This document shows positions 45,808-58,929 of a DNA stretch of 64,000 bases, one piece after another. Source of the DNA: Bacteroidales bacterium. Its GTDB lineage: Bacteria > Bacteroidota > Bacteroidia > Bacteroidales > Rikenellaceae. Both the position numbers and the translations under genes were made by a program. The stretch's first letter is position 1. Each line of letters begins with the position of its first letter. Location: NCBI GenBank assembly GCA_910575495.1, contig CAJTFS010000003.1, forward strand, positions 62,001-126,000, in the 5' to 3' direction. The notes beneath the pieces were generated by a model that ran no database searches, had not been told where the DNA came from, and saw nothing but the letters and a program-made list of their open reading frames with translations.

Positions 45808-46040
45808 GGCAGATGCTTGGACGCAGCGCACGGAAAAGGAGCAGGAACGATGCCACCCATGCATGGGCGTCAGGTCGCCATCGAAATAACGTAGCCAGGA
45901 AGCATGATCGGAACCCGCCCCGAAAGAAGATGAAGACCAATAACCCAAGTGCAGGCCGACATACGTCAAGTCTCCCGTCGACTCGTGGCGGTAGCCCGTA
46001 GCAGGCGCTGAAAAGCAGTCGCTCAAAGGAATGCGGCGGA
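45808..46040 (-). pseudogene. start-less DUF1566/FISUMP-like domain fragment A
   Basis: The frame is open well beyond both edges. It reads LRRIPLSDCF, then PATGYRHESTGDLTYVG, then GYWSSSS, a divergent stretch, and SFSVRCVQASA. That is the C-terminal pattern of the variable DUF1566/Fibrobacter-major-domain-like proteins of Bacteroidales. No start codon or N-terminal domain precedes it. Confidence 0.6.
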
Positions 46041-47042
46041 GAGGGAAACAATTCACAACTTTACGATTAAGCGAGAGTAAAGACCGTTCACGGGCTTTAC
46101 CGAGCAAGAGTAAAGTCAAGACCCCGTAGGGGGATTAATGCAAAATGCACAATTTATCATTCTGAGCGAAGCAACGAACGCAGCGAGTGCAGCAGCCGCT
46201 TGCGGACTATGCCGAGCAAGGAGGAGAAAGACAAACGAAGTGCAGTCAAGAATCTATTCTGGGCAAGGTTACAGATGTTTCGCTGCGCTCAACATGACGG
46301 TTGCAGCGGCTCTTCGCAAAGAAGTGAACGACAAACGAAGTGCAGTCAAGAATCTGTCTACGTATACTTTTATACAGATTCTTCGTCGCTCTGCTCCTCA
46401 GAATGACAAACTACTGAATTGTTCGCAAACTCCGCAGCAGACTGGAATATGCAACTGGCGGCAACGCGGAAAGGTGGAAGGAAAAGATGTGCGATTTGTT
46501 CGCAAATCTACCAACGTCGAATGCAAGCCGAATTCATAGAATCCGGAGCTCTTAGACGGGTAATTGCAGTTTACAGAGCTAAACATCGGCTTCAGCCGTG
46601 CGAGCCGAAGCCCCGCCCTGCGGAGGCTCGCAGACACTCGCCCCGCTGGCTTCGGCACGAAAACAACACAGCGCCGACCGAAGCAGAGCTTGCGAACTTA
46701 AACAGCGTGCGCTTTTTCTGAACGAAGCGAACGCTGCCTGCAGAGCATGTCCGGCGACAACCGAAGTGGCGAGCCTCCGCGCCGGGAGGCTGCGGCCCGC
46801 GCAACACTGCGAATTACAAAACCGCAGAACCACAGAAACCAGCAATCGAACAACCGTCCGCAAACAACTATTCCTTATCAATCCTCCTGCGCCATTACGC
46901 TGCCAGCGGACTGCTGAATCTACCGGCCGCGCTGACGAGACCGTTTCCCCAAAAACTGCGCGCAGAGTCAAGCAAACATGCTTGAATTTGCGGAGGCGGG
47001 AAGACGTGCCTGCAAGGAACCGTGGTCCCTGTCACTCCGGGC
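45808..47042 (-). repeat. composite dispersed repeat, copy A
   Basis: On the minus strand the element starts with CCCGGAGTGACAGGG near 47042. It runs through a block shared inverted with 53.6-53.9 kb (46430-46930, containing CAGCAGTCCGCTGGC and GCCAGTTGCATATTCCAG), then a block with GTCATTCTGAGGAG...GAAGAATCTG (about 46155-46410). It ends in a GYR...SVRCVQ domain fragment at 45808-46040. No complete gene lies inside. Confidence 0.75.
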
Positions 47043-47071
47043 CGTAAAAGCTGCTTTCCGAAACCCAAAAA

Positions 47072-47100
47072 GAAAGCGCACCCGCCGGGGGCACGCTTTC
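47072..47100 (-). terminator. terminator of secDF
   Basis: A 7-bp GAAAGCG/CGCTTTC stem (47072-47078 with 47094-47100) has a GC-rich loop and, on the minus strand, a T-rich tail. It lies 23 bp after the secDF stop. Confidence 0.65.
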
Positions 47101-47122
47101 CTGTTCCGAACGACCGGGAAGG

Positions 47123-50100
47123 CTACTGCTTCTCGATCTTCTTTTTGTCGGCCCGGGCCATGAGATCGTAAGCCACGGGAGTGGCGATGAAGATCGTGGC
47201 GGCAGTACCGACGACAACGCCGACCGTCAGCGCGAAGATGAATCCGCGGATGGTCTCGCCGCCGAAGAAGAAGATGGCGAGCAAGGTGACGAGCGTGGTA
47301 CCCGACGTATTGATCGTACGCGACAGGGTCGAGTTGATGGCGTTGTTGACATTCTCACGCAACGAACGCTTGGGATAGAGACCCAGGTACTCGCGGATGC
47401 GGTCGAAGACCACCACGGTGTCGTTGATGGCGTAACCGATGATCGTGAGGATGGCAGCGATGAAAGCCTGGTTCACCTCGAGGTTGAAAGGCATCAGACC
47501 GTAGAACATCGAGAAAAGACCGATGATGAACAACGAATTGACGGCCAGAGCCAGCGTAGCGCCCGTAGCCCACTGCCAACGCTTGAACCGGAAGGTGATG
47601 TAGAGTCCGATGGCGATGAGCGAGAAGAGCACCGAATAAATGGCGTTCCACGTCATGTCCTTGGCGATCGAAGGACCGATCTTGTCGGCATTGAGGATAC
47701 CGTTGACGTCGGTCTGCGTATTGCGGAACTGCTCGAAGGTGATGTCGTAGGTGTAGAGCGGGCTGACGGCATCGTAGATGATGCGCTCGACCTCGGCCGT
47801 AGCCTCGTCGGAGGTGTCGTCGTAGCGATACTGCGTGACGATGCGCATCTGGTTCTCATTGCCGTACTGCTTGACCTCGGAGCTGACCGAAGCGGCGTCG
47901 GCACCGGCCTGTGCGCCGAAAGCCTGCTCGATGCGGCTGCGCACCTCCTCGGCCGAAACGGCCCTGTCGAAACGGACGACGTAGGCGCGGCCGCCGGTGA
48001 ACTCGGCACCGAGGTTGAGCCCGCGCACGGCGAACGACACGCACGAAAGAACGACGATGACGCCCGTCGCGATGTAGGCGATCTTGCGCTTGGCGATGAA
48101 GTCGATGCGGGTGCTGTTGAGGAAGTTCTCCGACCACGAACGCGAGAAGGAGATATGGCCCCACTTGGAGACGATCCACTCGATGAGCAGACGCGTGACG
48201 AAGACGGCGCAGAAGAACGAAGTGACGATACCGATGATCAACGTGGTGGCGAAGCCCTGCACGGGACCGTTGCCGAAGATGAAGAGGACGATACCGGTGA
48301 TGATGGTGGTGAGGTTACCGTCGATGATGGCCGAATAAGCCTTCGAGAAACCGTCCTTGATGGCGAGCGAAAGGCTCTTGCCGCCGCGCAGCTCCTCCTT
48401 GATGCGCTCGTAGATGATGACGTTGGCGTCGACGGCCATACCCATCGTCAGCACGATACCGGCGATACCGGGCAGGGTGAGGACGGCGCCGAACGAGACG
48501 AGCACGCCCATCAGCAGGAAGACGTTGGTCAGCAAAGCGATGTCGGACATCCAGCCTGCGGTCTTGTAGAAAAGACCCATGTAGAGCAGGACGAGAACGA
48601 AGGCGATGAGGAACGACAACATACCGGCGTTGATCGACTCCTGGCCCAGCGAAGGGCCTACGACCGTATCCTGGATGATCTTGGCGGGAGCGGGGACCTT
48701 GCCCGAGCTGAGGACGTTGGCGAGGTCCTGCGCCTCCTGGATGGTGAAGTCGCCGGAGATCTCGGACGAACCCTTGTCGATCTTGGTGCGGACGCTGGGT
48801 GCCGAATAGACGTAGCCGTCGAGCACGATGGCGATGCACTTGCCGATGTTGTCGCCCGTGAGACGCGACCACTCCTGGGCGCCCTCGGCGTTCATGGTCA
48901 TCGAAACGACGGCCGAAGCGCCGCGCTCGGCATACTGCTCGTGAGCCTCGGTGATGACCGAACCGTCGAGCGGAGCCTTGCCGTCGGGCGAGGTGACGCG
49001 GATGGCGTAGAGCATGTAGCGGCCGTCGATGCGGTCGTCGCCCTTGACGCCCCACTTGAACTCGATGTCGGCGGGGAAGAACTCGCGCACGGCGGGATCG
49101 TTGAGATAAGCCTCGACGGCAGCCATGTCGGCCTTGTAGGCGGCACCGATGGCGGCTCCGCCGGCGAACGAAGGATCGAGCACGGCGAAGAGCGGATTCT
49201 GGGCGCGGTCGTAACGTGCGGACTGCACGGCGACAGGCTCCTCGGTCTGGCCGATCTCGGCGATCAGATCGCTGGTCTCGCCGGCGGCGGCAGCGTCCTC
49301 CGTTTTCTCGGCGACGGGCTTCCCGACGGACTCGCCCGAAGCGTTAGCCTCGGTCTGGAGCGAACGCAGATACTTGTCGGCGGTCATCATCGAAGAGAGG
49401 ATCTCGTTGGCGTTGTAGGTGGTCCAGAACTCGAGCGAAGCGGTACCCTGCAGGAGGTCGCGGACACGCTGCGGCTCCTTGACGCCCGGCAGCTCGACCA
49501 GGATGCGGTGCGAATTGGGCAGGCGGATGATGTTGGGCTGCGTGACGCCGAAGTGGTCGATACGACTGCGGAGCACGTTGTGGGAAGCCTCGATGGCGGC
49601 CTCGGCCTCACGCTTGAGGATCTTTTCGACCTCGGCGTTGGTGCTCTCCAGCGTAATGTCCTTGCGGTCGGGGCTGACGAAGACCGTGGCGAGGGAGCCG
49701 CCGTTGGTCTGACGCTCGTAAGCCTTGACGAACTCGCCGATATAATCCTTGGACGTACCCTCCTTCATGGCTTCGTTGGCCTCGGCCATGGCGGCGATGA
49801 AGGCGGGATCGTTCTGGCTCTGACCGGCCAGCGCCTTGACGAGGTCCTCGACCTGCACCTCCAGCATGACGTTCATGCCGCCCTTGAGGTCGAGACCGAG
49901 GTTGAGCTCCTTCTCCTTGCAGTCCTTGTAGGTGTAGGAGATGAAGCCCAGGTTGTAGACGGGCAGGTTCTGGACCGAATCGAGGTAGTGCTGCTCGGCC
50001 TCGGCCTGTTGCTCGAGCGGGAACTGCGCGGCATAGGCGGCCGCGTGCTTCTCGACGTTCCGCGTTTTGAACGTGAACGAGAGCTGGAAAACGCACGCAA

Positions 50101-50146
50101 GCGCCAGGAGCGCCGCGATGAGTTTGATGAAACCTTTACTTTGCAT
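47123..50146 (-). CDS. secDF: fused protein translocase subunit SecDF
   Basis: A 1007-residue fusion of SecD and SecF, which uses the proton motive force to pull exported proteins from the Sec channel. An N-terminal helix (about 7-25) precedes the SecD P1 domain with NLGLDLKGGMNVMLEV. Then come LRSRIDHFGVTQPNI and VELPGV, a second periplasmic part with TMNAEGAQEW, and six helices with MGMAVDANVIIYERIKEE. The SecF half begins near 700 and contains NLGAEFTGGRAYVV and GYAINDTVVVFDRIRE. An Ala/Glu-rich low-complexity insert lies near 275-320. It has its own promoter. Confidence 0.96.
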   Translation of the reverse strand: MQSKGFIKLIAALLALACVFQLSFTFKTRNVEKHAAAYAAQFPLEQQAEAEQHYLDSVQNLPVYNLGFISYTYKDCKEKELNLGLDLKGGMNVMLEVQVEDLVKALAGQSQNDPAFIAAMAEANEAMKEGTSKDYIGEFVKAYERQTNGGSLATVFVSPDRKDITLESTNAEVEKILKREAEAAIEASHNVLRSRIDHFGVTQPNIIRLPNSHRILVELPGVKEPQRVRDLLQGTASLEFWTTYNANEILSSMMTADKYLRSLQTEANASGESVGKPVAEKTEDAAAAGETSDLIAEIGQTEEPVAVQSARYDRAQNPLFAVLDPSFAGGAAIGAAYKADMAAVEAYLNDPAVREFFPADIEFKWGVKGDDRIDGRYMLYAIRVTSPDGKAPLDGSVITEAHEQYAERGASAVVSMTMNAEGAQEWSRLTGDNIGKCIAIVLDGYVYSAPSVRTKIDKGSSEISGDFTIQEAQDLANVLSSGKVPAPAKIIQDTVVGPSLGQESINAGMLSFLIAFVLVLLYMGLFYKTAGWMSDIALLTNVFLLMGVLVSFGAVLTLPGIAGIVLTMGMAVDANVIIYERIKEELRGGKSLSLAIKDGFSKAYSAIIDGNLTTIITGIVLFIFGNGPVQGFATTLIIGIVTSFFCAVFVTRLLIEWIVSKWGHISFSRSWSENFLNSTRIDFIAKRKIAYIATGVIVVLSCVSFAVRGLNLGAEFTGGRAYVVRFDRAVSAEEVRSRIEQAFGAQAGADAASVSSEVKQYGNENQMRIVTQYRYDDTSDEATAEVERIIYDAVSPLYTYDITFEQFRNTQTDVNGILNADKIGPSIAKDMTWNAIYSVLFSLIAIGLYITFRFKRWQWATGATLALAVNSLFIIGLFSMFYGLMPFNLEVNQAFIAAILTIIGYAINDTVVVFDRIREYLGLYPKRSLRENVNNAINSTLSRTINTSGTTLVTLLAIFFFGGETIRGFIFALTVGVVVGTAATIFIATPVAYDLMARADKKKIEKQ

Positions 50147-50206
50147 CGGTGTTAAATGTATTTGTTATAATTCGTTGTTGTTTTTATTATTGCGCATGAT
50201 AGCATG

Positions 50207-50237
50207 CAAAGATATGAAAAACAATTCGGAATTCACA
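50207..50237 (-). promoter_or_regulatory. promoter of secDF
   Basis: Minus-strand TTG (50237-50235), 20 bp, then TATCTTTG (50214-50207) matches the Bacteroidetes promoter. The leader to the ATG is about 55 nt. Confidence 0.7.
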
Positions 50238-50461
50238 ATTAAAATGGCAATTATATGCGTCACAGCGCGAAAATCGTGCTCATCGCTCCGGCGGGCGGAC
50301 GCATTTGCCCATGCTGCCGTTAGCGCGTCGGCCCGGGTTTCCGTGCTCAGGCACTCCGGCATCGCGGCACGGCCCGAATCGGCGGACTTGCCTAACCGCA
50401 AAAAGGGCTCCCGGCCGTCGGGTGCTGCTCCCGGGACCGCATGCCATGATCTCCATCCATA

Positions 50462-50925
50462 ACTTCGTCATTCTGAACGAAGTGAACCGGTGTTCGCCGC
50501 AAACGCAGAGACCGCTGGCGGACTTTGCAGAACGGACAAGGCGGCGCAGCCAAGTAAACAGCGCATACAGATGTTTGACTGCACTGCGTTTGTCTCTCTC
50601 CTCCTTGCTCGGAAGAGTCCGCAAGCGGCCTCTGCGCTCGCTGCGTTCGTCGATCCGATCCGCTCGACATGTCATTTGCGGCAGGTGCAGAACCGATGCA
50701 GGCACCTCTGCCAAGCAAGGAGGAGAGCAGCGCGGACAAACATCGGTTCAGGCAGAGTCGGGAATCTTCCTTGTGCGGACCGGAGACTCCCCGGGCGGAG
50801 GTCCGCAAGCGTGCCCCGCAGGCTCCGGTCCGAAAATCATTGCGAACCTTGCCTTGGAATACCACAGGCTCCGCCCGGGAACAACTGCTGCATCCGGCGT
50901 TCGGCAGAGTGCAGAGTGCAGGGTA
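50462..50925 (+). repeat. dispersed repeat D
   Basis: It begins with TCGTCATTCTGAACGAAGTG, close to the core of composite repeats A-C. It continues through CTCCTCCTTGCTCGG and CCGCAAGCGG motifs shared with A and C. Its second half (50750-50900) matches region E at 36.7 kb in opposite orientation. It contains no gene and lacks the GYR-type fragment. Confidence 0.65.
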
Positions 50926-51126
50926 CGACCCAAGAATCGTCGCACTCCTTTTGGCCGGGCAAAAATTGCAGAACCCGCCCTGCAACTACGGCCGCGGCCC
51001 ATACGAACATCGACCGGATGCGAGCAGAGGTGTCCGATAACGGAATCGCCTGCGACACGATCGATTCCGCACATTGCCTACGGAAAGCGCAGCCCCGGGA
51101 AACCGGAACTGCGCTGAAAGAAACGG
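50926..51126. other. spacer downstream of dnaK
   Basis: GC-rich sequence between repeat D and the dnaK terminator. No gene recognised. Confidence 0.4.
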
Positions 51127-51127
51127 A

Positions 51128-51147
51128 ACGGCGGGCAAATGCCCCGT
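51128..51147 (-). terminator. probable terminator of dnaK
   Basis: An ACGG(C)GGGCA / TGCCCCGT hairpin lies 19 bp beyond the dnaK stop and is followed on the minus strand by a pyrimidine-rich CGTTTCTTTC tail. Confidence 0.5.
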
Positions 51148-51165
51148 CCCGAAAGGGAACAGGAA

Positions 51166-53082
51166 CTATTTCACCTCTTCGAACTCGACATCCTCGGGCT
51201 GGTTGCCGTTGGAGGCGTCCTGCTGACCGCCGCCATTGGCCTGCTGGCCTGCGCCCTGCGCACCGGCCGCACCCTGGGCCTGCTGCTGGGCGTAGATGTC
51301 CTGCGAAGCGGCCTGCCAAGCGGCGTTGAGCTCGGCGATGGCGCCGTCGATAGCAGCGATGTCGGCATTCTTGTGCGCCTCCTTGAGCTTGCCGAGCGCC
51401 GTTTCGATGGCCGACTTCTTGTCGGCGGGCAACTTGTCGCCGTACTCCTTGAGCTGCTTTTCAGTAGCGAAGATATTGGAATCGGCAGCGTTGATCTTGT
51501 CGATGCGCTCCTTCTCCTCCTTGTCCTTGGCTTCGTTGGCCTTGGCCTCGTCGCGCATGCGCTGGATCTCCTGCTCGGTCAGACCCGACGACGCCTCGAT
51601 GCGGATCTTCTGCTCCTTGCCGGTGCCCTTGTCCTTGGCCGAAACGTTGAGAATACCGTTGGCGTCGATGTCGAACGTCACTTCGATCTGCGGCACGCCG
51701 CGCGGAGCTGCGGGGATGCCGTCGAGGTGGAAACGGCCGATCGACTTGTTGTCGCGGGCCAGCGGACGCTCGCCCTGGCATACGTTGATCTCCACCGAAG
51801 GCTGGTTGTCGGCCGCCGTGGAGAAAGTCTCCGACTTGCGGGTGGGGATGGTGGTGTTGGCGTCGATGAGCTTGGTCATCACGCCGCCCAGGGTCTCGAT
51901 GCCGAGCGACAGCGGCGTGACGTCGAGCAACAGCACGTCCTTGACCTCGCCGGTGAGCACACCGCCCTGGATGGCGGCGCCGATGGCCACGACCTCGTCG
52001 GGGTTGACCGACTTGTTGGGCGCCTTGCCGAAGAACTCCTCGACGATCTTCTGGATGGCGGGGATACGCGTGGAACCGCCCACGAGGATCACTTCGTCGA
52101 TCTGCGAAGCCTGCAGACCGGCATCCTGCAACGCCTGCTTGCAAGGCTCGACGGTCTTGCGGATGAGGTGGTCGCACAACTGCTCGAACTTGGCGCGCGT
52201 GAGCGACATGACGAGGTGCTGCGGAATGCCGTTGACGGGCATGATATAGGGCAGGTTGATCTCGGTCGTGGTGGACGACGAAAGCTCGATCTTGGCCTTC
52301 TCGGCGGCCTCCTTCAGACGCTGGAGGGCCATGGGATCCTGGCGCAGGTCGATCTGGTGTTCGGCCTTGAACGCCTCGGCCATGTAGTCGATCAGCACGT
52401 GGTCGAAGTCGTCGCCTCCGAGGTGGGTGTCGCCGTTGGTCGACTTGACCTCGAAGACGCCGTCGCCCAACTCGAGAATCGAAATATCGAACGTACCGCC
52501 GCCGAGGTCGTAGACGGCGATCTTCATGTCGCTGTCCTTCTTGTCGAGACCGTAGGCCAGTGCGGCGGCCGTAGGCTCGTTGATGATGCGGCGGACCTTG
52601 AGACCTGCGATCTCGCCCGCCTCCTTGGTAGCCTGGCGCTGCGAATCGGAGAAGTAGGCCGGCACGGTGATGACCGCCTCGTCGACCTGCTGTCCGAGGT
52701 AGTCCTCGGCCGTCTTCTTCATCTTCTGGAGGATGATGGCCGAAATCTCCTGCGGCGTATACTGGCGGCCGTCGATGTCGACGCGGGGCGTGTTGTTGTC
52801 GCCGCGGACGATGCTGTAGGGCGCACGTTCGATGTCGGAAATGACCTGGTCGTAACGCTCGCCCATGAAACGCTTGATCGAGAAGACCGTGCGTTTGGGG
52901 TTGGTGATCGCCTGGCGCTTGGCCGGGTCGCCCACCTTGCGCTCGCCGCCCTCGGTGAACGCCACCACCGACGGCGTGGTGCGGTGACCCTCCGAGTTGG
53001 GAATCACCACGGGTTCGTTGCCTTCCATGACGGACACGCAGGAGTTCGTCGTGCCCAAGTCGATACCGATGATCTTTGCCAT
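51166..53082 (-). CDS. dnaK: chaperone protein DnaK (Hsp70)
   Basis: A 638-residue Hsp70. The nucleotide-binding domain begins [29 protein letters not shown] and [13 protein letters not shown] are the phosphate and adenosine motifs. The substrate-binding domain contains [14 protein letters not shown], and the end is a Gln/Gly/Ala-rich tail closing with EDVEFEEVK. It is cytoplasmic and assists folding with DnaJ and GrpE, which are not in this window. The ATG at 53082 is fixed by the family N-terminus. A 15-bp palindrome lies in its upstream region. Confidence 0.97.
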
Positions 53083-53521
53083 AATGCTATTAGGTTTAAT
53101 TGATTGTTCTTTCTGTTCGTGCCGGTCGTCCGGCGGGGCCTTTTTCTGCAACGTGACGTTGCGTCGGCCGAAGCCGCCCCGCCCGACTGCGCGGCGCCCC
53201 TCATCGCGGGACTCGCCCTTGGTGTGTTCAAAGGTTATACCAAACGCCGCTGCCTGCCAAATTGACAGCCTTTTTGACAATTCCGCCATTTTTCCGATTT
53301 TCGCATGTGCTATTTTGGCAGAAAGTCGCCAGAATGGCTTTGGTTCCACGACCGTTCACCCGGTTTTTCCCGGCGTTCGGTGTGCCGTCTTTCTGAACGC
53401 AGCAAATCGACAGCCGTTGTGGGGTGACTCGGAAAATAGCGCTATGTATTTCTTCGCTTAAACTTTTTGTTTTCAACCTTTCCCTTTTAACCTTTCATTT
53501 TTACCTTTGAAAAGGCAACTT
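53083..53521. other. dnaK upstream region
   Basis: This contains the palindrome at 53148-53162, AT-rich sequence near 53225-53300 with minus-strand TATAAC that may be part of the dnaK promoter, and TTTTAACCTTTC-type heptads at 53470-53512. No gene recognised. Confidence 0.45.
53148..53162. promoter_or_regulatory. palindrome upstream of dnaK, possible operator
   Basis: GCAACGTGACGTTGC is a perfect 7-bp inverted repeat around one base, 66 bp before the dnaK start. It is not a CIRCE element. A TTGACA direct repeat with a 12-bp period lies near 53262-53279. Confidence 0.4.
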
Positions 53522-53928
53522 CACACCCGGAGTGACAGGGGTCACGGCTTTTGTCAGCGTGGTTTGTAGATTCAGCAGTCCGCTGGCGGCGTAATGGCGC
53601 GAGAGGATTGATAAGGAATAGTTGTTTTTGGGGCGGGTTTTGCGCCGGTTTCTGTAGTTCTGCGGTTTTTGCAATTCGTAGAATTGCGCGAGCCGCAGCC
53701 GGTTCTCGGTTTTAATAGTGGTACAAGAAATATTCTCGTGCCGAAGCCAGCGGGGCGAGTTTTGCGAGCCTCCGCAAGGCGGGGCTTCGGCTCGCACGGC
53801 TGAAGCCGGTGTTTAGCTCTGTAAGCCGCGGCCGCCCCGAACATCTTTTCTCTTTACCTCCTGCGTTGCCGCCAGTTGCATATTCCAGTCTGCCGCGGAG
53901 TTTGCGAACAATGGGTAAATAGTGTTTC

Positions 53929-53978
53929 AAGGTCTGCGACCTTGCGCCCGGGGCCGGCTCGCATCGGAGATGCGACCC
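53929..53978 (-). repeat. dispersed double-hairpin element, copy 2
   Basis: Read on the minus strand, hairpin 1 pairs 53978-53970 with 53964-53956 (8 of 9 pairs). Hairpin 2 pairs 53943-53938 with 53934-53929 (AAGGTC/GACCTT). The linker has CCCGGGCGC. The stem of hairpin 1 differs from copy 1 at 28.7 kb on both sides, keeping pairing. Confidence 0.6.
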
Positions 53979-54357
53979 CCGCAGCCGGCCCGGGCGAGCA
54001 CTTGAATGAGTTCCCGAAAGGAAATGATTCAATGCAAAGACAACATTGTCATTCTGAGGAGATCGGAAGATCGACGAAGAATCTGTATAGAAGTATACGT
54101 AGACAGATTCTTGACTGCACTTCGTTTGTCGTTCACTTCTTTGCGAAGAGCCGCTGCAACCGTCATGTTGAGCGCAGCGAAACATCTGTAACCTTGCTCA
54201 GAATGACAAAGTAGGGCTTGGATTCGGTTGCAGCCTGCGGGGCACGCCTGGCGACAGCCGGATGCTTGCGGGCCTGCGCCGGCCAAGGCTGCGGCCCGCA
54301 CTGAAGAACCGCACGACGCGTCGGCATTCATTGCGAAAACCATTGTTCCGCACCCTC

Positions 54358-54588
54358 CGCGTCATTCCTCATAGCGATTGCTTTTTACTCCTGCTGCGGG
54401 CTACCGCGACCGCGTGTCGGGAGCTTTGGTCAACGTCGGTACGGGAGGCTCCTACTCTGCTGCCGCCTCGCTTTCCGCCACGAATAGCCGCGGAAGCATC
54501 CTTTGGTTCACGCTTCACGAGACGAGTCCCCTGTACGCCGGCTATCGGGCCAATGCCCGCACCGTGCGCTGCGTCCAAGCATCTGCAC
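54358..54588 (+). pseudogene. start-less DUF1566/FISUMP-like domain fragment B
   Basis: TLRVIPHSDCF is in one frame. After a run of five T the frame shifts to TPAAGYRDRVSGALVNVG, followed by a divergent middle and NARTVRCVQASA. The GYWSSS motif of the other copies is replaced by SYSAAAS. There is no start codon or N-terminal domain. The apparent one-base shift suggests decay or absence of selection for translation. Confidence 0.6.
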
Positions 54589-54933
54589 GTGAAGTTTGCC
54601 ATTCGCGCTGTCGCCGATGCCGACAGCGCGATGCTTTTCATCCGAAAGGACCCGGAATGCGCGGAGAGCCAATCAACCGACGGTTCCCGTTACACCCCAA
54701 AAGAAGCCCCGGGTCGCCCGAGCGCCCAAACTTTCAAAGGAAACCAACACCCCAACCAAGGAAACATCCCAAACGGCGCGCACACCCGAATCGTCCGAAC
54801 GCAGAACACACAAATACACGGAAATCCCCGAAACATCCACCCGCCCCGGACAGCATGGACCCGAGAACCCGCCGGGCTACCGGAACGCCGCCCCGGACAG
54901 AGGGCACCCGAGCCGTCCGGAACAGCACAAAAA
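54589..54933. other. spacer downstream of the small HTH gene
   Basis: Sequence rich in C and A on the plus strand with open but domain-less frames (Pro/Thr/Arg-rich). I see no gene or element in it. Confidence 0.4.
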
Positions 54934-54959
54934 AGCGCGAACGGTCACCCGCTCGCGCT
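54934..54959 (-). terminator. terminator of the small HTH gene
   Basis: An AGCGCGA/TCGCGCT stem (54934-54940 with 54953-54959) is followed by six T on the minus strand, 38 bp past the stop of the gene at 54997-55239. Confidence 0.65.
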
Positions 54960-54996
54960 ATGCGGAAGAAGCCGCCCCTTCCGCCGTTCGTCCGGC

Positions 54997-55239
54997 TTAC
55001 TTCTGCTCGCCGAGGATACGCATCGCCGCGTCGAGAATGGCGGTGTCGTCCAACGTGACCACGCCTCCGTCGGGTCCGGGCTCGAAATGGACGCCCACGC
55101 ACTCTTTGGCTTCGTGCTTGCCGCCGAAATAGTTGCGCACGGTTTCCACGTCGATTCCCAATTCGTCTGCAATGCGCTGCGAGCTGCCGCTGGGCAGCTT
55201 GTCCTTGATACGGCGCAGTTCGTTAAAGGTGATGATCAT
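54997..55239 (-). CDS. small helix-turn-helix DNA-binding protein
   Basis: An 80-residue protein. Residues about 4-38 look like a helix-turn-helix (ITFNELRRIKDKLPSG, QRIADELGIDVETVRNYFGG), similar to the AsnC/LacI-type recognition helix pattern. The C-terminal part (EPGPDGGVVTLDDTAILDAA, ending RILGEQK) is typical of a conserved Bacteroidales small DNA-binding protein. It is monocistronic, with its own promoter and terminator. The ATG at 55239 (MIITFNEL) is preferred; two longer starts would read into the promoter leader. Targets are unknown. Confidence 0.75.
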   Translation of the reverse strand: MIITFNELRRIKDKLPSGSSQRIADELGIDVETVRNYFGGKHEAKECVGVHFEPGPDGGVVTLDDTAILDAAMRILGEQK

Positions 55240-55271
55240 ATCCGTTGATTTTAAGTTATGGTTCTGCACAA

Positions 55272-55303
55272 CTAAGTTACGACAATTTTGTCAAACCGCC
55301 AAA
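55272..55303 (-). promoter_or_regulatory. promoter of the small HTH gene
   Basis: Minus-strand TTTG (55303-55300), 20 bp, TAACTTAG (55279-55272) is one base from consensus. The leader is about 25-30 nt. Confidence 0.65.
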
Positions 55304-55663
55304 TTTATCCCGGGAAAAATAAGTGTCCGAAAGACCCGCTTCCCGATTCGACGCACAACGCCCCGCATCCGGAGAGGAAACGGGGCGTAGTGAGGTCGGC
55401 TGCAAGGCCGCAAACCGCCGGTATCGGCATCCGCCGGCCTTGCAATGTCCGGACAGATGCGGTGCTACAACTTAGCAAAATCGGGATACAAAACCGAAAA
55501 TCGGAACACCGAACCGCCTTGCGGAACCGGGCAGAACCGAGCCGGAACGCGGAGACAAAACCGGAGTGCGAACGGAATCATGTTACGAGATGAAACCGAA
55601 GCCGCCGAACCGGAACCGCAGCGCAAAAACCGGACGGAGAGCGGAACCCGGAGGAAGAAAGGG
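55304..55663. other. spacer between FKBP-like and HTH genes
   Basis: It holds an 8-bp stem ACGCCCCG/CGGGGCGT (55358-55365 with 55381-55388, 15-nt loop) without a U-tract, and otherwise purine- and C-rich sequence. No gene recognised. Confidence 0.4.
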
Positions 55664-57238
55664 TTACTTTTCCTCCTCGGGCTCGATGTAGATCTGGAAC
55701 AGGAGCGGCGTGAAAGGCAGGATTTCGGTATAGACCTCGGTGGTCACCGTCGTCTCCGACTGATCGGGAACGGACGGCGTGCCATAGTAAGGATTGCCGT
55801 AGTAGCCGTTCATGTAATTGCCGTAGTAACCCGGGTAATAACTGCCGTATCCGCCACCGTAGCCATAATAGCTGTTGATGTAGTTCAGATAGTTGAGATA
55901 ATCCAGATAACTTGCCGAATAACCGTTCGAGGAAGTTTGGGTCGAGGTCGAACCCGTCTTGCCGGCCGAACCGTAGGCGCTGGTCGAAACGGTGACGAGC
56001 GAAGCCCACTGGCCGAATTTCATGCCGGGAATCGCATAATACCAGGCCTGGATCATGCCGCCCTCCTCGGGGGTATAGGAGAGGGCTTCGCCCTTCTTCT
56101 TGACCTCGCCGTAGATGATCTGCTTCACTTCGTCGATGTTGGTGTCGAAGATGAAACCGTCGAGGAAACGGCCGATATACCAGATCTTGGCCTTGCCGTC
56201 CATGCCCACCGAATCGGCCTTGAGGTCCTTGATATGGGTATAGGAAGGTTCTCCGAAACGCTCGACGAGCGCCTTGCTGATACGCCGGTCGATCTCGTCC
56301 ATCGAAGCCTCGCTGACGAAAGGCGCGACGCCCGCCGCATAAGGTTTGCCGAAATCGAACGGCGCTTCGTCCGGACGATAACGGAGGTTGACATAGACCT
56401 GCGGCACCGAGTCGCAGGCGCTCACCCACCTTTTGTCGGGCAGGTTGTAGGGATGGGTGGGATCGTCGGGACCCGACGGCATGGGCAGCGTACCCTCGGC
56501 GAGTTTCTCCGCCGAACTGTAAATCTGCAACTTGCCGTTCTCCTCGCAGAAACGGTCCACGGCCGTGCCCTCGGCTTCGACCGGATTCTTGACCGTGGAG
56601 GAGATCTTCATCTCGATGCGGATCGGCTTGCCCGATTCGAGCGAAAACTGCCCCTCGTAACCGCCGTCGCCCAACATGTTGCCGACGATGCGCGACGGAC
56701 AATAGAGCACGACTTCGGAACCTGGGCGCAGCAACAACTCGCGCGACTCGAATCCCCGCTCGGCGGCGTACTTCTCGAAATACGTCTCGCCGAGTTTCTG
56801 CACGTTGCGCATGGCCAGGTAGGTGCCTTCGGACAAACCGGTGTTCGCGGTGCCGCAATAACGGTAGAACGGCACATAATGGGTGTACTTGGTGAAGGTT
56901 CCGACGAAACGGGCCTCGGGCGCACGGCGCGTGAGGACGATACGGTGCCCCAGGTCGCGGGCCGAGAAATCGAACGTCACCCAGCAAGCCGTGTCGTTGA
57001 TGGGCAAGGCACCGGGATCGCCGGGATCGATGACATCGATGTAGTAGCCCGCGTCGCCGAACTCCTGGTAATTACCCGCCAGATCGGGACAGTGCTGGGC
57101 GATCCATGCCTCGAGCGACATGTCCTCGAACGTGTCATAGGAATCGCTCTGCCTCTCGGCGCAGGCCGCCAGCGAAAGCGCGGCGACCAGGGCGGCAAAA
57201 CCCGGACGGAATCTACGTATCATATTCATTATTTGCAT
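55664..57238 (-). CDS. FKBP-like lipoprotein with Tyr/Gly/Asn-rich insert
   Basis: A 524-residue lipoprotein (AALSLAACAER, Cys about 26). Two beta-rich regions are visible. The second, about 375-520, has FKBP prolyl isomerase landmarks: IWYIGRFLDGFIFDTN, GGMIQAWYYAIPGMKFGQWA, then SAYG and finally EILPFTPLLFQIYIE. Between AYG and ILPFTPL there is an insert of about 80 residues rich in Tyr, Gly, Asn and Ser (YGYGGGYGSYY type), which a normal FKBP lacks. Several aromatic active-site residues seem changed, so activity is doubtful. It starts 1 bp after the paralogous gene stops; Met residues at 57229 and 57223 are alternative starts. Confidence 0.75.
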   Translation of the reverse strand: MQIMNMIRRFRPGFAALVAALSLAACAERQSDSYDTFEDMSLEAWIAQHCPDLAGNYQEFGDAGYYIDVIDPGDPGALPINDTACWVTFDFSARDLGHRIVLTRRAPEARFVGTFTKYTHYVPFYRYCGTANTGLSEGTYLAMRNVQKLGETYFEKYAAERGFESRELLLRPGSEVVLYCPSRIVGNMLGDGGYEGQFSLESGKPIRIEMKISSTVKNPVEAEGTAVDRFCEENGKLQIYSSAEKLAEGTLPMPSGPDDPTHPYNLPDKRWVSACDSVPQVYVNLRYRPDEAPFDFGKPYAAGVAPFVSEASMDEIDRRISKALVERFGEPSYTHIKDLKADSVGMDGKAKIWYIGRFLDGFIFDTNIDEVKQIIYGEVKKKGEALSYTPEEGGMIQAWYYAIPGMKFGQWASLVTVSTSAYGSAGKTGSTSTQTSSNGYSASYLDYLNYLNYINSYYGYGGGYGSYYPGYYGNYMNGYYGNPYYGTPSVPDQSETTVTTEVYTEILPFTPLLFQIYIEPEEEK

Positions 57239-57239
57239 G

Positions 57240-57887
57240 TTATTCGACTTTATCCACGCGGAAGAAGACCGCTACGGGGGTCTGCACGGGAATCATATAC
57301 ATGTAATTCTTATCCCCGTAGGCCATGTTGTAGGTCATGTAGGCCTCCACCCGATCGCCCTCGCGGCAACCAAGTAACGCGGCCTGCAACCCTTTTATTA
57401 TGCCGCCCTTGCGCATATCGATCCGCAACGGCTCGAAATCCCAGGCTCCGGGCGTGAGTCCGGCCATGCGGAAATAGGGCTCGAAGGATGGATCGTTGGT
57501 GTAGAACGGGGGCGTGACGCTCGAAAAATTGCTCTCCGTAAGGCCGCCGTCGGGAAGTCCCCGGATGACGGTATTGTTGAAAACATAGGAGCGGAACGTG
57601 ACGGTCACCCACGAATCGGCCGTCACTTCGGGACGCTCCGGGCGGGCGGGATTGTAATAATCCTCGATGTCGATATAGCGGTAGACCGCATCGCCCGACA
57701 CGGTGTAGAAAGCCGCCGGAGTCCCCTCCTCGACCTGCTCGCCGGGAACGAGCCGGGGCTGGTGGGAGCGCTCGAGAAACGAGACGAAGTCGCTCTTCTG
57801 CTTGCCGAGCACGTCCACCGGGTCGGAACAACCTGCCGAGAGGGTGCACAGCACGGAAAAGAGCAGCGATATGGAAAACTTTTTCAT
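57240..57887 (-). CDS. FKBP-like lipoprotein
   Basis: A 215-residue lipoprotein (TLSAGCSDP, Cys about 21) whose C-terminal half resembles an FKBP-type prolyl isomerase: WVTVTFRSYVFNNTVI, GGIIKGLQAALLGCREGDRVEAYM, YGDK and PVAVFFRVDKVE. It is probably periplasmic or outer-membrane anchored and pairs with the larger FKBP-like gene downstream. The ATG at 57887 (MKKFSISL) gives a normal signal peptide. A second ATG six bases upstream lies almost at the predicted transcription start. Confidence 0.75.
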   Translation of the reverse strand: MKKFSISLLFSVLCTLSAGCSDPVDVLGKQKSDFVSFLERSHQPRLVPGEQVEEGTPAAFYTVSGDAVYRYIDIEDYYNPARPERPEVTADSWVTVTFRSYVFNNTVIRGLPDGGLTESNFSSVTPPFYTNDPSFEPYFRMAGLTPGAWDFEPLRIDMRKGGIIKGLQAALLGCREGDRVEAYMTYNMAYGDKNYMYMIPVQTPVAVFFRVDKVE

Positions 57888-57902
57888 CGGCATGGAATCG
57901 TG

Positions 57903-57910
57903 CAAATTTA
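57903..57910 (-). promoter_or_regulatory. -7 box of the FKBP-like gene pair
   Basis: Minus-strand TAAATTTG matches TAnnTTTG exactly, followed by C. It is only 16 bp upstream of the chosen ATG, implying a very short leader. The -33 element is weak. Confidence 0.55.
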
Positions 57911-58104
57911 CAAAAACAATCCGGATTATACCATAACCGGCGGCAAAAACTTCGGCACCCGGCACAAAAGCGCTTCGGGCGGAGCGCAGCTATCCGGACC
58001 GAACCCTCCGACCGGACGATTCCGAACCCGCCGACGGCATGAAAGCGACATCCTGCCCCGACGGACGATTTTCCGCCGGAGCAGGAGTCGCCGGAACAGC
58101 TTCC
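57911..58104. other. spacer upstream of the FKBP-like pair
   Basis: Between the promoter and repeat C. GC-rich, no gene recognised. Confidence 0.4.
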
Positions 58105-58336
58105 GCAGATGCTGGACGCAGCGCACGGACAACGCGTTGGACCGGTTGTCCGAGTTCAAGGGGTTCACGTTGGTTGTTCTGAACCCGATGTCGCCCGCGT
58201 TCGGATGGTCGGCCGCAAAGGACGACGAAGACCACCACCAACCGCCGTCGCCGACGGCCGTCAAGGCTCCCGACGCGTTGTGGCGGTAGCCCGAAGCAGG
58301 CGTTGTGAAGCAATCGCTGGAATGAATGCGGCGGAG
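58105..58336 (-). pseudogene. start-less DUF1566/FISUMP-like domain fragment C
   Basis: One frame reads TLRRIHSSDCF, then TPASGYRHNASGALTAVG, GGWWWSSSSF, a divergent middle and ALSVRCVQ. One base fewer than in copies A and B then turns QASA into QHLRK. No start codon or N-terminal domain. Confidence 0.6.
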
Positions 58337-58827
58337 AGTCGGAACAATGGTTTTTGCTGCGAATGTCGATGCGTCGGGTGGCTCTCCAGTGCGGGCCGCA
58401 GCCTCGCCCGGCGGAGGCCCGCAAGCGTGCCCCGCAGGCTGCGCCCGAATCCAAGCCCTACTTTGTCATTCTGAGCGAAGCGAATCGACAAACGCAGCGA
58501 GCGCAGAGACCGCTTGCGGACTATGCCGAGCAAGGAGGAGAAAGACAAACGAAGTGAAGTCAAGAATCTATAGAGACTATCAGGAACCAGATTCTTCGTC
58601 GATCTTCCGATCTCCTCAGAATGACAAAACGGAAAGAATTGCGATCCGCACAACGCGTTGGAATCGTACTATTCATTGTTCGCAAACTCCGCGGCAGACT
58701 GGGATGAAAAACTGCCGGACAAGACTCCTGTCCCGCTGGTCGGGAAAGCAGACGGGCCGGCAGCGGACTGCTGAATCTGCATTGCCGCGCTGGCGCGAAC
58801 CGTAGCAGGCGCCACTCCGGGCATGAA
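58105..58827 (-). repeat. composite dispersed repeat, copy C
   Basis: On the minus strand it starts with ATGCCCGGAGTGGCG near 58827. Then come a shortened version of the first block (CAGATTCAGCAGTCCGCTG and GCGGAGTTTGCGAACAAT, 58680-58770), the GTCATTCTGAGGAG...GAAGAATCTG block (58465-58640), and the GC-rich core with CTGCGGGGCACGC (58395-58450). It ends in a GYR...SVRCVQ fragment at 58105-58336. Copies B and C share the junction from core to domain almost base for base. Confidence 0.75.
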
Positions 58828-58929
58828 GCTGCGAGATTACAAGACACCAAGGCAGAACGCACGCGTTCGTCCCGGGCCTTTCTCGTTAAACCGGACCGTT
58901 CCGGACACAGTCTTTCGTTGGGAAACGGC

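What the first reader, a model, noticed from the sequence alone, without database searches (positions are those of the whole stretch)
45808..58827. Three composite repeats that each end in a start-less GYR...SVRCVQ domain cassette
Copies A (45808-47042, minus), B (53522-54588, plus) and C (58105-58827, minus) share a module order. The order is a CCCGGAGTG left end, a block with CAGCAGTCCGCTG, a GTCATTCTGAGGAG...GAAGAATCTG block, a GC-rich core in B and C, then an open segment coding for a DUF1566/FISUMP-like C-terminal domain. Edges of that domain are conserved in DNA (AGCGA.TGCTT..., CGGGCTACCGC, GTGCGCTGCGTCCA), while the middle is highly divergent. None has a start codon or an N-terminal domain. 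This is what silent donor cassettes for recombination into an expressed surface protein would look like; a degraded mobile element carrying the domain is the main alternative.
Basis: partly seen in the sequence, partly recalled or inferred. Interest (0 to 1): 0.8.

Follow-up and report, generated by a model that had tools for sequence, protein, structure and literature searches.

The report
One mutating gene, ninety scattered templates
The three repeats belong to a set of 88 cassettes spread over an Alistipes (gut bacterium) genome, from which a reverse-transcriptase system likely rewrites the end of one predicted pilus-like surface protein with errors at template adenines, so that the cell would both switch among templates and mutate them.

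Summary
Copies A, B and C are three of 89 places in this Alistipes genome with the exact edge GTGCGCTGCGTCCA (reversed-pattern control: 0). One is the 3' end of a single full-length gene for a predicted pilin-like lipoprotein; an Avd-like gene, 14 tandem cassettes and a reverse transcriptase follow it, and 74 cassettes are scattered. The gene's variable region (VR) matches one remote cassette: 6 of 6 differences inside the edge lie at template adenines (next-best same-length cassette: 36 non-adenine mismatches). A second species gives 22 of 22, again from another contig. Related full-length proteins match other cassettes; one is window copy B plus one N>Y change. Most cassettes carry a structured RNA leader (36 pairs, 22 with double compensatory change) before an open ~180-nt template; 24 of 55 testable dispersed ones have a promoter-like motif. 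This is best read as a diversity-generating retroelement (DGR) with many templates acting in trans. The donor-cassette idea is right; plain recombination and a decayed mobile element fit poorly. Nine literature searches listed no such system, but key papers were not held.

The parts
46904..47041 (-). Copy A: 5' half of the RNA leader, from CCCGGAGTG to AGATTCAGCAGTCCGCTG (CAGTC arm of the long-range helix at 46909-46913)
   Evidence: Read; covariance model R1 matches only weakly here (46843-46973, E 0.003)
46016..46020 (-). Copy A: GACTG, 3' arm of the long-range helix, pairing with CAGTC (compensatory to CAATC/GATTG of other copies)
   Evidence: pair counts over 76 cassettes
45818..45997 (-). 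Copy A: template core (C3_107818). It has no Asn codon, so few adenines to mutate
53502..53509 (+). Copy B: promoter-like TACCTTTG just before the leader
   Evidence: motif enriched in 24 of 55 dispersed cassettes. Promoter role recalled and untested
53526..53585 (+). Copy B: 5' half of the RNA leader, CCCGGAGTG to AGATTCAGCAGTCCGCTG
   Evidence: model R1 match 53515-53668, E 3e-14
54376..54380 (+). Copy B: GATTG, 3' arm of the long-range helix
54398..54577 (+). Copy B: template core (C3_116577); the variable region of homologue P0004 equals it except N>Y
58761..58821 (-). Copy C: 5' half of the RNA leader, CCCGGAGTG to AGATTCAGCAGTCCGCTG
   Evidence: model R1 match 58661-58832, E 1e-17
58311..58315 (-). 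Copy C: GATTG, 3' arm of the long-range helix
58113..58292 (-). Copy C: template core (C3_120113), 7 Asn codons

Best explanation
A, B and C are trans-acting template cassettes of a diversity-generating retroelement (DGR): its reverse transcriptase likely copies a cassette RNA with errors at adenines, and the copy likely replaces the 3' variable region (VR) of one surface-protein gene. The genome has one such target gene and 88 cassettes, 14 in tandem between the Avd-like gene and the RT and 74 elsewhere. A complete cassette is a structured RNA leader, a ~180-nt open template and a conserved 3' edge; 24 of 55 testable dispersed ones have a promoter-like motif. Variation would come in two layers: which cassette is used, and adenine mutagenesis of it. 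SHOWN by sequence: the cassette set, target gene, RT and Avd-like gene, covarying leader, adenine-only relation between certain VRs and particular cassettes, and different cassettes matched by different related proteins. INFERRED: transcription of cassettes, leader function, reverse transcription and retrohoming, pilus location, binding benefit. UNKNOWN: how cassettes spread.
For: VR of the target differs from cassette C7_97321 (other contig) at 6 positions inside the edges, 6 of 6 at cassette A; next-best same-length cassette has 36 non-A mismatches. G007: 22 of 22 inside the edges, other contig. Homologues: P0001 9/9, P0003 9/9, P0004 1/1 (window copy B), P0005 7/7 residue changes reachable by A-only changes, from three cassettes; A. 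muris relatives P0009 9/9, P0008 7/8. Yardstick: A-only share in 4074 non-parental pairs averages 0.195, maximum 0.61. Single-template relatives L245 16/16 and L267 14/14 validate the test; Paludibacter array 9/9. Leader: 36 pairs, 22 with changes on both sides, 0 of 500 shuffles. Avd-like gene and RT at the locus. 88 of 89 cores open. Promoter-like motif 24/55 against shuffle mean 0.68.
Against: P0002 has a near cassette but only 1 of 5 changes is A-only; P0007, P0010, P0011 and P0013 are unassigned; P0012 (1/3) and P0017 (9/14) carry non-A changes in their first 12 residues, and A. muris 4 of 21 in the first 36 nt. Avd and FISUMP scores are below their cut-offs. The RT was not placed by phylogeny. 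11 of 87 cassettes lack a recognised leader 5' half, and copy A matches the leader model weakly. The leader model found nothing in the Paludibacter array. Codon positions 1 and 2 are not the most variable over the whole set. No expression data; draft assemblies.
Confidence: 0.9

Rival explanations
1. Gene conversion from silent cassettes by homologous recombination (as in pilE or vlsE systems, recalled), without a reverse transcriptase.
For: Many donors, one recipient with matching edges. Homologue P0012 runs past the edge into cassette-like flank (HLR), which recombination would explain easily, and some VRs are mosaic at the 5' side.
Against: Differences inside the edges lie at donor adenines only, 6/6 and 22/22, while gene conversion copies faithfully or in blocks; an Avd-like gene and RT sit between target and donors.
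Confidence: 0.04
2. The cassettes are products, not templates: cDNA copies of VRs or of an unseen master template inserted around the genome, a graveyard of past variants.
For: Dispersed cores have fewer Asn codons than array cores (mean 3.7 against 7.9); C1_60598 looks like an adenine-mutated copy of C1_61019 (15 of 20 at A, 0 of 20 in reverse); sites differ between species.
Against: In the assigned pairs the adenines are in the cassette and the changes in the VR, the direction of a template; open frames, a covarying leader and promoter-like motifs are kept. Some cassettes may be both product and template.
Confidence: 0.04
3. A degraded mobile element that happens to carry the domain.
For: Copies are dispersed and vary in presence between species: the A site lacks the cassette in G007 (122 bp between flanks against 1505) and in G009. 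Other repeats sit inside A, B and C.
Against: 88 of 89 cores open in one frame, conserved codons varying only at silent positions (for example R49), covariation of the leader, cores found at the end of full-length genes.
Confidence: 0.01

Closest known systems
Classical DGR of Bordetella phage BPP-1 (avd, TR, bRT; described in PMC12875486, passages seen)
   Same: RT plus Avd-like protein, adenine-specific differences between template and VR, VR at the 3' end of the target gene, a structured RNA next to the template.
   Different: One template in cis there, with the structured spacer 3' of it; here 88 cassettes, most of them away from the RT, with the structured RNA 5' of the template and only about 45 nt between the last template edge and the RT start.
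DGRs with several VRs or TRs (PMC6642488, section 13 read)
   Same: More than one TR per DGR has been reported: 271 of 948 DGRs have several VRs and 79.9% of these one TR; Pseudomonas costantinii has 6 TRs and 91 TR-VR pairs.
   Different: That paper stresses one TR feeding many VRs, and its extreme case has few A-to-N changes; here many templates feed one VR, with adenine changes, as leader-bearing units.
Bacteroides DGRs acting on tip pilins (Macadangdang et al., known to me here only through a passage and reference in PMC12632263)
   Same: Bacteroidales, pilin-like target.
   Different: Paper not held, so its template arrangement was not checked.
Silent-cassette antigenic variation (pilE, vlsE; recalled)
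   Same: Many donors feed one expressed surface gene.
   Different: No RT and no adenine-specific change there; here donors carry an RNA leader and often a promoter-like motif.

Membership tests
Diversity-generating retroelement | Template-VR differences confined to template adenines | tested here: met
   6/6 and 22/22 nt inside the edges; 17/21 in A. muris with the rest in the first 36 nt
Diversity-generating retroelement | DGR-type reverse transcriptase encoded at the locus | tested here: inconclusive
   RVT_1 60.4 bits over cut-off; GLPIGNLTSQ motif is DGR-like by recall; NCBIfam gave nine RT families, all below cut-off; no phylogeny made. Relatives with 49-60% identical RTs include single-template DGR loci
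Diversity-generating retroelement | Accessory protein Avd | tested here: inconclusive
   NF033474 E 1.2e-14, 54.4 bits (cut-off 80); PF22296 bAvd 38.8 bits (cut-off 40): clear similarity, below both cut-offs
Diversity-generating retroelement | VR at the 3' end of a target gene, in a C-type-lectin-like domain | tested here: inconclusive
   Position met. Fold not shown: FISUMP 20.6 bits, below cut-off 41.65; C-terminal part of the model has pLDDT under 50
Diversity-generating retroelement | Fixed 3' boundary with variable 5' junction | tested here: met
   Base after the edge keeps the recipient letter in G000 and G007; non-A changes lie only at the 5' side in A. muris and its assigned relatives
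Diversity-generating retroelement | Mutagenic retrohoming through RNA | not testable with these tools
   Needs culture, RT removal and sequencing
Silent-cassette gene conversion | Recipient segments are faithful copies or block mosaics of donors | tested here: not met
   Scattered adenine-only changes
Known RNA family of the leader | Match to an Rfam 15 family | tested here: not met
   In window, L034 and L036 only a cobalamin riboswitch and two tRNAs reached gathering scores

The most novel reading that the evidence does not exclude
A DGR grown into a heritable repertoire: a genome-wide library of template-RNA genes feeds one pilus tip in trans, and mutagenic copying also runs between cassettes. 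On this reading the adenine-rich array is the mutable stock, and the adenine-poor dispersed cassettes are an archive of formerly used binding variants that can be called back.
Probability: 0.35. Interest if true: 0.96.

Novelty: new variant of a known kind. Interest (0 to 1): 0.9.

Why it matters
DGRs are usually pictured as one template feeding one or a few targets nearby. Here one target is fed by many templates across the genome, each tied to a covarying RNA leader, so the template RNA looks like a separable, trans-acting module. It would combine the two ways microbes vary surface proteins, donor switching and targeted hypermutation, in one gut commensal. The leader (no Rfam 15 match in the three sources searched) gives a defined RNA for asking how a DGR reverse transcriptase picks its template, and a cultured species, Alistipes muris DSM 112343, carries the system.

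Tried and rejected
Plain silent-cassette recombination: disfavoured by the adenine-only pattern. Degraded mobile element: disfavoured by open frames and covariation. A second full-length target: the 727-codon frame upstream of cassette C3_16907 is an arginine-rich reading of other genes, and the protein search finds one full-length copy. Codon-position signature: mean diversity 0.41/0.35/0.45 at positions 1/2/3 of 63 same-length copies, so the simple DGR signature does not show over the whole set; parent-offspring pairs carry the argument. Cassettes inside genes: 20 of 88 lie in an ATG-started frame of 200 aa or more on either strand, uninformative in GC-rich DNA. Hairpin plus T-run after the 3' edge: 37 of 89, no control, not claimed. 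Insertion ends at the empty A site: flanks too diverged to show a target-site duplication. Variable-domain structure: not confident. No VR template could be tested for the A. senegalensis MAG (its VR reads partly N) and none was found for genome G063 among 8 distinct cores in hand, the VR included, of 13 edge matches.

In one search, eight loci were tested for A-only pairs: L263, L245 and L267 gave one each; L237 and L241 gave none; in L238 only one segment and in L232 and L234 no segment was found by the pattern.

Literature: nine searches listed no paper on dispersed trans templates that I could recognise from titles and abstract starts. Seen: passages by term in PMC8144416, PMC6642488, PMC3521204, PMC4891356, PMC10907252, PMC12632263, PMC8867640, PMC12875486, PMC4159848; none of my terms occurred in PMC10053308; section 13 of PMC6642488 in full. 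Not held: doi 10.1093/nar/gkx1150, PMC12787319, doi 10.1038/s41564-017-0034-2, so a prior description there is not excluded.

Full report
WHAT IS THERE. The window is C3:62001-126000 of a 2.22-Mb draft genome in 22 contigs. The genus is Alistipes: same-genus genome G012 has the contig that one search lists as Alistipes sp. (L224). The three repeats contain cores of 180 nt, A 45818-45997 (-), B 54398-54577 (+), C 58113-58292 (-), from GGGCTACCGC to GTGCGCTGCGTCCA. The edge occurs 89 times in the genome, the reversed control 0 times. 88 of 89 cores are open in the SVRCVQ frame, and edge distances are 163-175 nt in steps of 3; the one without an open frame is C2_488642. Contig C14 (3.3 kb) has a core at each end, so the number may include an assembly duplicate.

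THE LOCUS. On contig C1, minus strand, one core is the 3' end of a 792-codon open frame (C1:65479-67857). I tested it as a 753-aa protein: PF06321 FimA and PF16249 DUF4906 match above cut-off, FISUMP (TIGR02145) below it. A search with this protein finds one full-length copy in the genome. Then follow an ORF of unknown kind, an Avd-like gene (L034:13297-13707), 14 tandem cassettes (C1:57255-62894, steps of about 400-450 nt, one of 660) and a 397-aa reverse transcriptase (C1:56017-57210) with the motif GLPIGNLTSQ. RTs at least 85% identical occur in 4 of 37 genus genomes searched, this one included. A model of homologue P0001 has mean pLDDT 58.9 and is unreliable over the C-terminal part; its best Foldseek matches are fimbrial and cell-adhesion proteins of Bacteroidales (4rdb, 4gpv, 3r4r, 5dhm).

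DONOR AND RECIPIENT. The target's VR and cassette C7_97321, on another contig, differ at 6 positions inside the edges, all A in the cassette; the base just after the edge also differs. The next-best same-length cassette has 36 non-A mismatches. In G007 the VR and a cassette on another contig differ at 22 positions inside the edges, all A in the cassette (20 are A>G), and at the same base after the edge. In Alistipes muris DSM 112343, 17 of 21 differences lie at A of a cassette on another contig; the other four are in the first 36 nt, as a variable 5' junction and a fixed 3' edge would give.

DIFFERENT CASSETTES IN RELATED PROTEINS. A homologue search with the target found 215 proteins and listed 120; I read the best 17. 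Of the first seven, four VRs are A-only derivatives of G000 cassettes: P0001 9/9 and P0005 7/7 from C1_62234, P0003 9/9 from C1_58087, P0004 1/1 from C3_116577, which is window copy B. P0002 has a near match that is not A-only (1 of 5), P0006 is truncated, P0007 is unassigned. The other ten are 71-94% identical to the A. muris target: P0009 is 9/9 from an array cassette, P0008 7/8 from a dispersed one, P0012 (1/3) and P0017 (9/14) fit one dispersed cassette except in their first 12 residues; P0010, P0011 and P0013 are unassigned; P0014-P0016 have shortened VRs and were not assigned. P0121, picked by eye from six further proteins, is 12/12. Among 4074 non-parental cassette pairs the A-only share averages 0.195, maximum 0.61.

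THE LEADER IS A STRUCTURED RNA. Twenty-two compact leaders, taken from the 50 copies then in hand, align over 207 columns. The consensus has 36 pairs; 94.6% of cells pair and 22 pairs have changes on both sides; none of 500 shuffles reaches this, and sliding partners by 1-3 columns drops pairing to 25-45%. A long-range helix, CAATC with GATTG, closes the 3' half: 63 of 76 cassettes pair there fully, including CAGTC/GACTG (3) and CGATC/GATCG (2). Where the unit is stretched by insertions, hairpin-5 arms still pair better with their own partner than with swapped ones (mean -14.9 against -13.2 kcal/mol, 0 of 300 swaps as good, 22 cassettes; compact ones -19.2 against -15.2, 23 cassettes; in 31 of 76 the arm was not located). 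A covariance model finds C (E 1e-17), B (3e-14) and, weakly, A (0.003) in the window. It finds matches in 26 of 34 related sources, two contigs being present twice, and in 7 of 15 further ones. In the relatives L123, L238, L243, L244 and L245 the match ends about 15-20 nt before an RT-proximal template. So the leader belongs to this branch of DGRs, and what is new is its multiplication together with the template. No Rfam family was matched by cassettes in the three sources searched.

TRANSCRIPTION UNITS. Of 87 cassettes, 76 have the leader's 5' half within 1.4 kb. Among 55 dispersed ones with a readable start, 24 have TAnnTT[T/C]G 10-40 nt before it; shuffles give mean 0.68, maximum 4; an upstream control window and the reverse strand give 0; the array gives 0 of 13, as one shared transcript would. 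Copy B has TACCTTTG at 53502-53509. That this motif is the Bacteroidetes promoter is recalled; transcription is untested.

DISTRIBUTION AND ORIGIN. Edge copies: G000 89, G012 87, A. senegalensis MAG 49, G009 36, A. muris 24, G007 21, one more Alistipes sp. 13; controls 0. In G007 one of the 21 is no open core. G012's array is assembled twice on one contig, perhaps an error. The A site is empty in G007 and G009; the B site holds a different core in G012 and an inverted one in G009, so sites change between species. In the array C1_60598 looks like an adenine-mutated relative of C1_61019 (15 of 20 differences at A, 0 of 20 in reverse; the other five are not explained), so cassettes may receive mutagenic copies too. 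Dispersed cores have fewer Asn codons than array cores (3.7 against 7.9, p 5e-5); copy A has none. Paludibacter sp. 221 (RT 48% identical) has an array of 8 cores and its VR derives from the second, 9 of 9 at A, although the leader model found nothing there. How dispersed copies arose is not known.

READING. Best explanation: a DGR with many trans-acting templates. Direct: sequence relations, counts, covariation. Inferred: transcription, leader function, retrohoming, pilus location, binding function. Against it stand the unassigned VRs, sub-threshold Avd and FISUMP scores, no RT phylogeny, draft assemblies and no expression data. It belongs to the DGR kind by its adenine-specific template-VR relation and fixed 3' edge; it departs from the known plan in number and place of templates and in the 5' position of the structured RNA (3' in BPP-1 according to PMC12875486).

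Noticed in passing
window 53927-54001: A GC-rich stretch inside copy B matches many places of genome G012 at 91-99% identity over about 75 bp: an interspersed repeat nested in the cassettes.
   Followed up: no
window 46407, 54048 and 58625 (start of the motif in A, B, C): The GTCATTCTGAGGAG...GAAGAATCTG block lies between the two halves of the leader in all three copies, like an insertion that the RNA fold tolerates.
   Followed up: partly
L118 (G012:C85:7000-25000): The cassette array appears twice on one contig, 7657 bp apart, with the target's variable region running into the first copy: a misassembly or a recent recombination.
   Followed up: no
L263 4518-9880 (Paludibacter sp. 221); L231-L234 (Rikenella), L237 (Prevotella), L241 (Mediterranea): Small template arrays outside Alistipes: 8 cores in L263, and 3 to 5 leader-model matches per locus in the others.
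   Followed up: partly
P0012, P0014, P0015, P0016 (homologues of the A. muris target): P0012 runs past the edge into cassette-like flank (HLR); P0014-P0016 have variable regions shortened by about 18 residues.
   Followed up: partly
L034 13694-15178 (-): An ORF between target and Avd-like gene has no Pfam match above cut-off; its C-terminal end VECLLFVADLKKEIDGYL recurs in G012 and G007.
   Followed up: no
L034 2816-3024 (-): Cobalamin riboswitch (RF00174, E 4e-22) a few kb from the DGR locus.
   Followed up: no
G000:C5:150473-151300 (L001, L003): A second reverse transcriptase in a 607-aa frame, not at the cassette locus.
   Followed up: no
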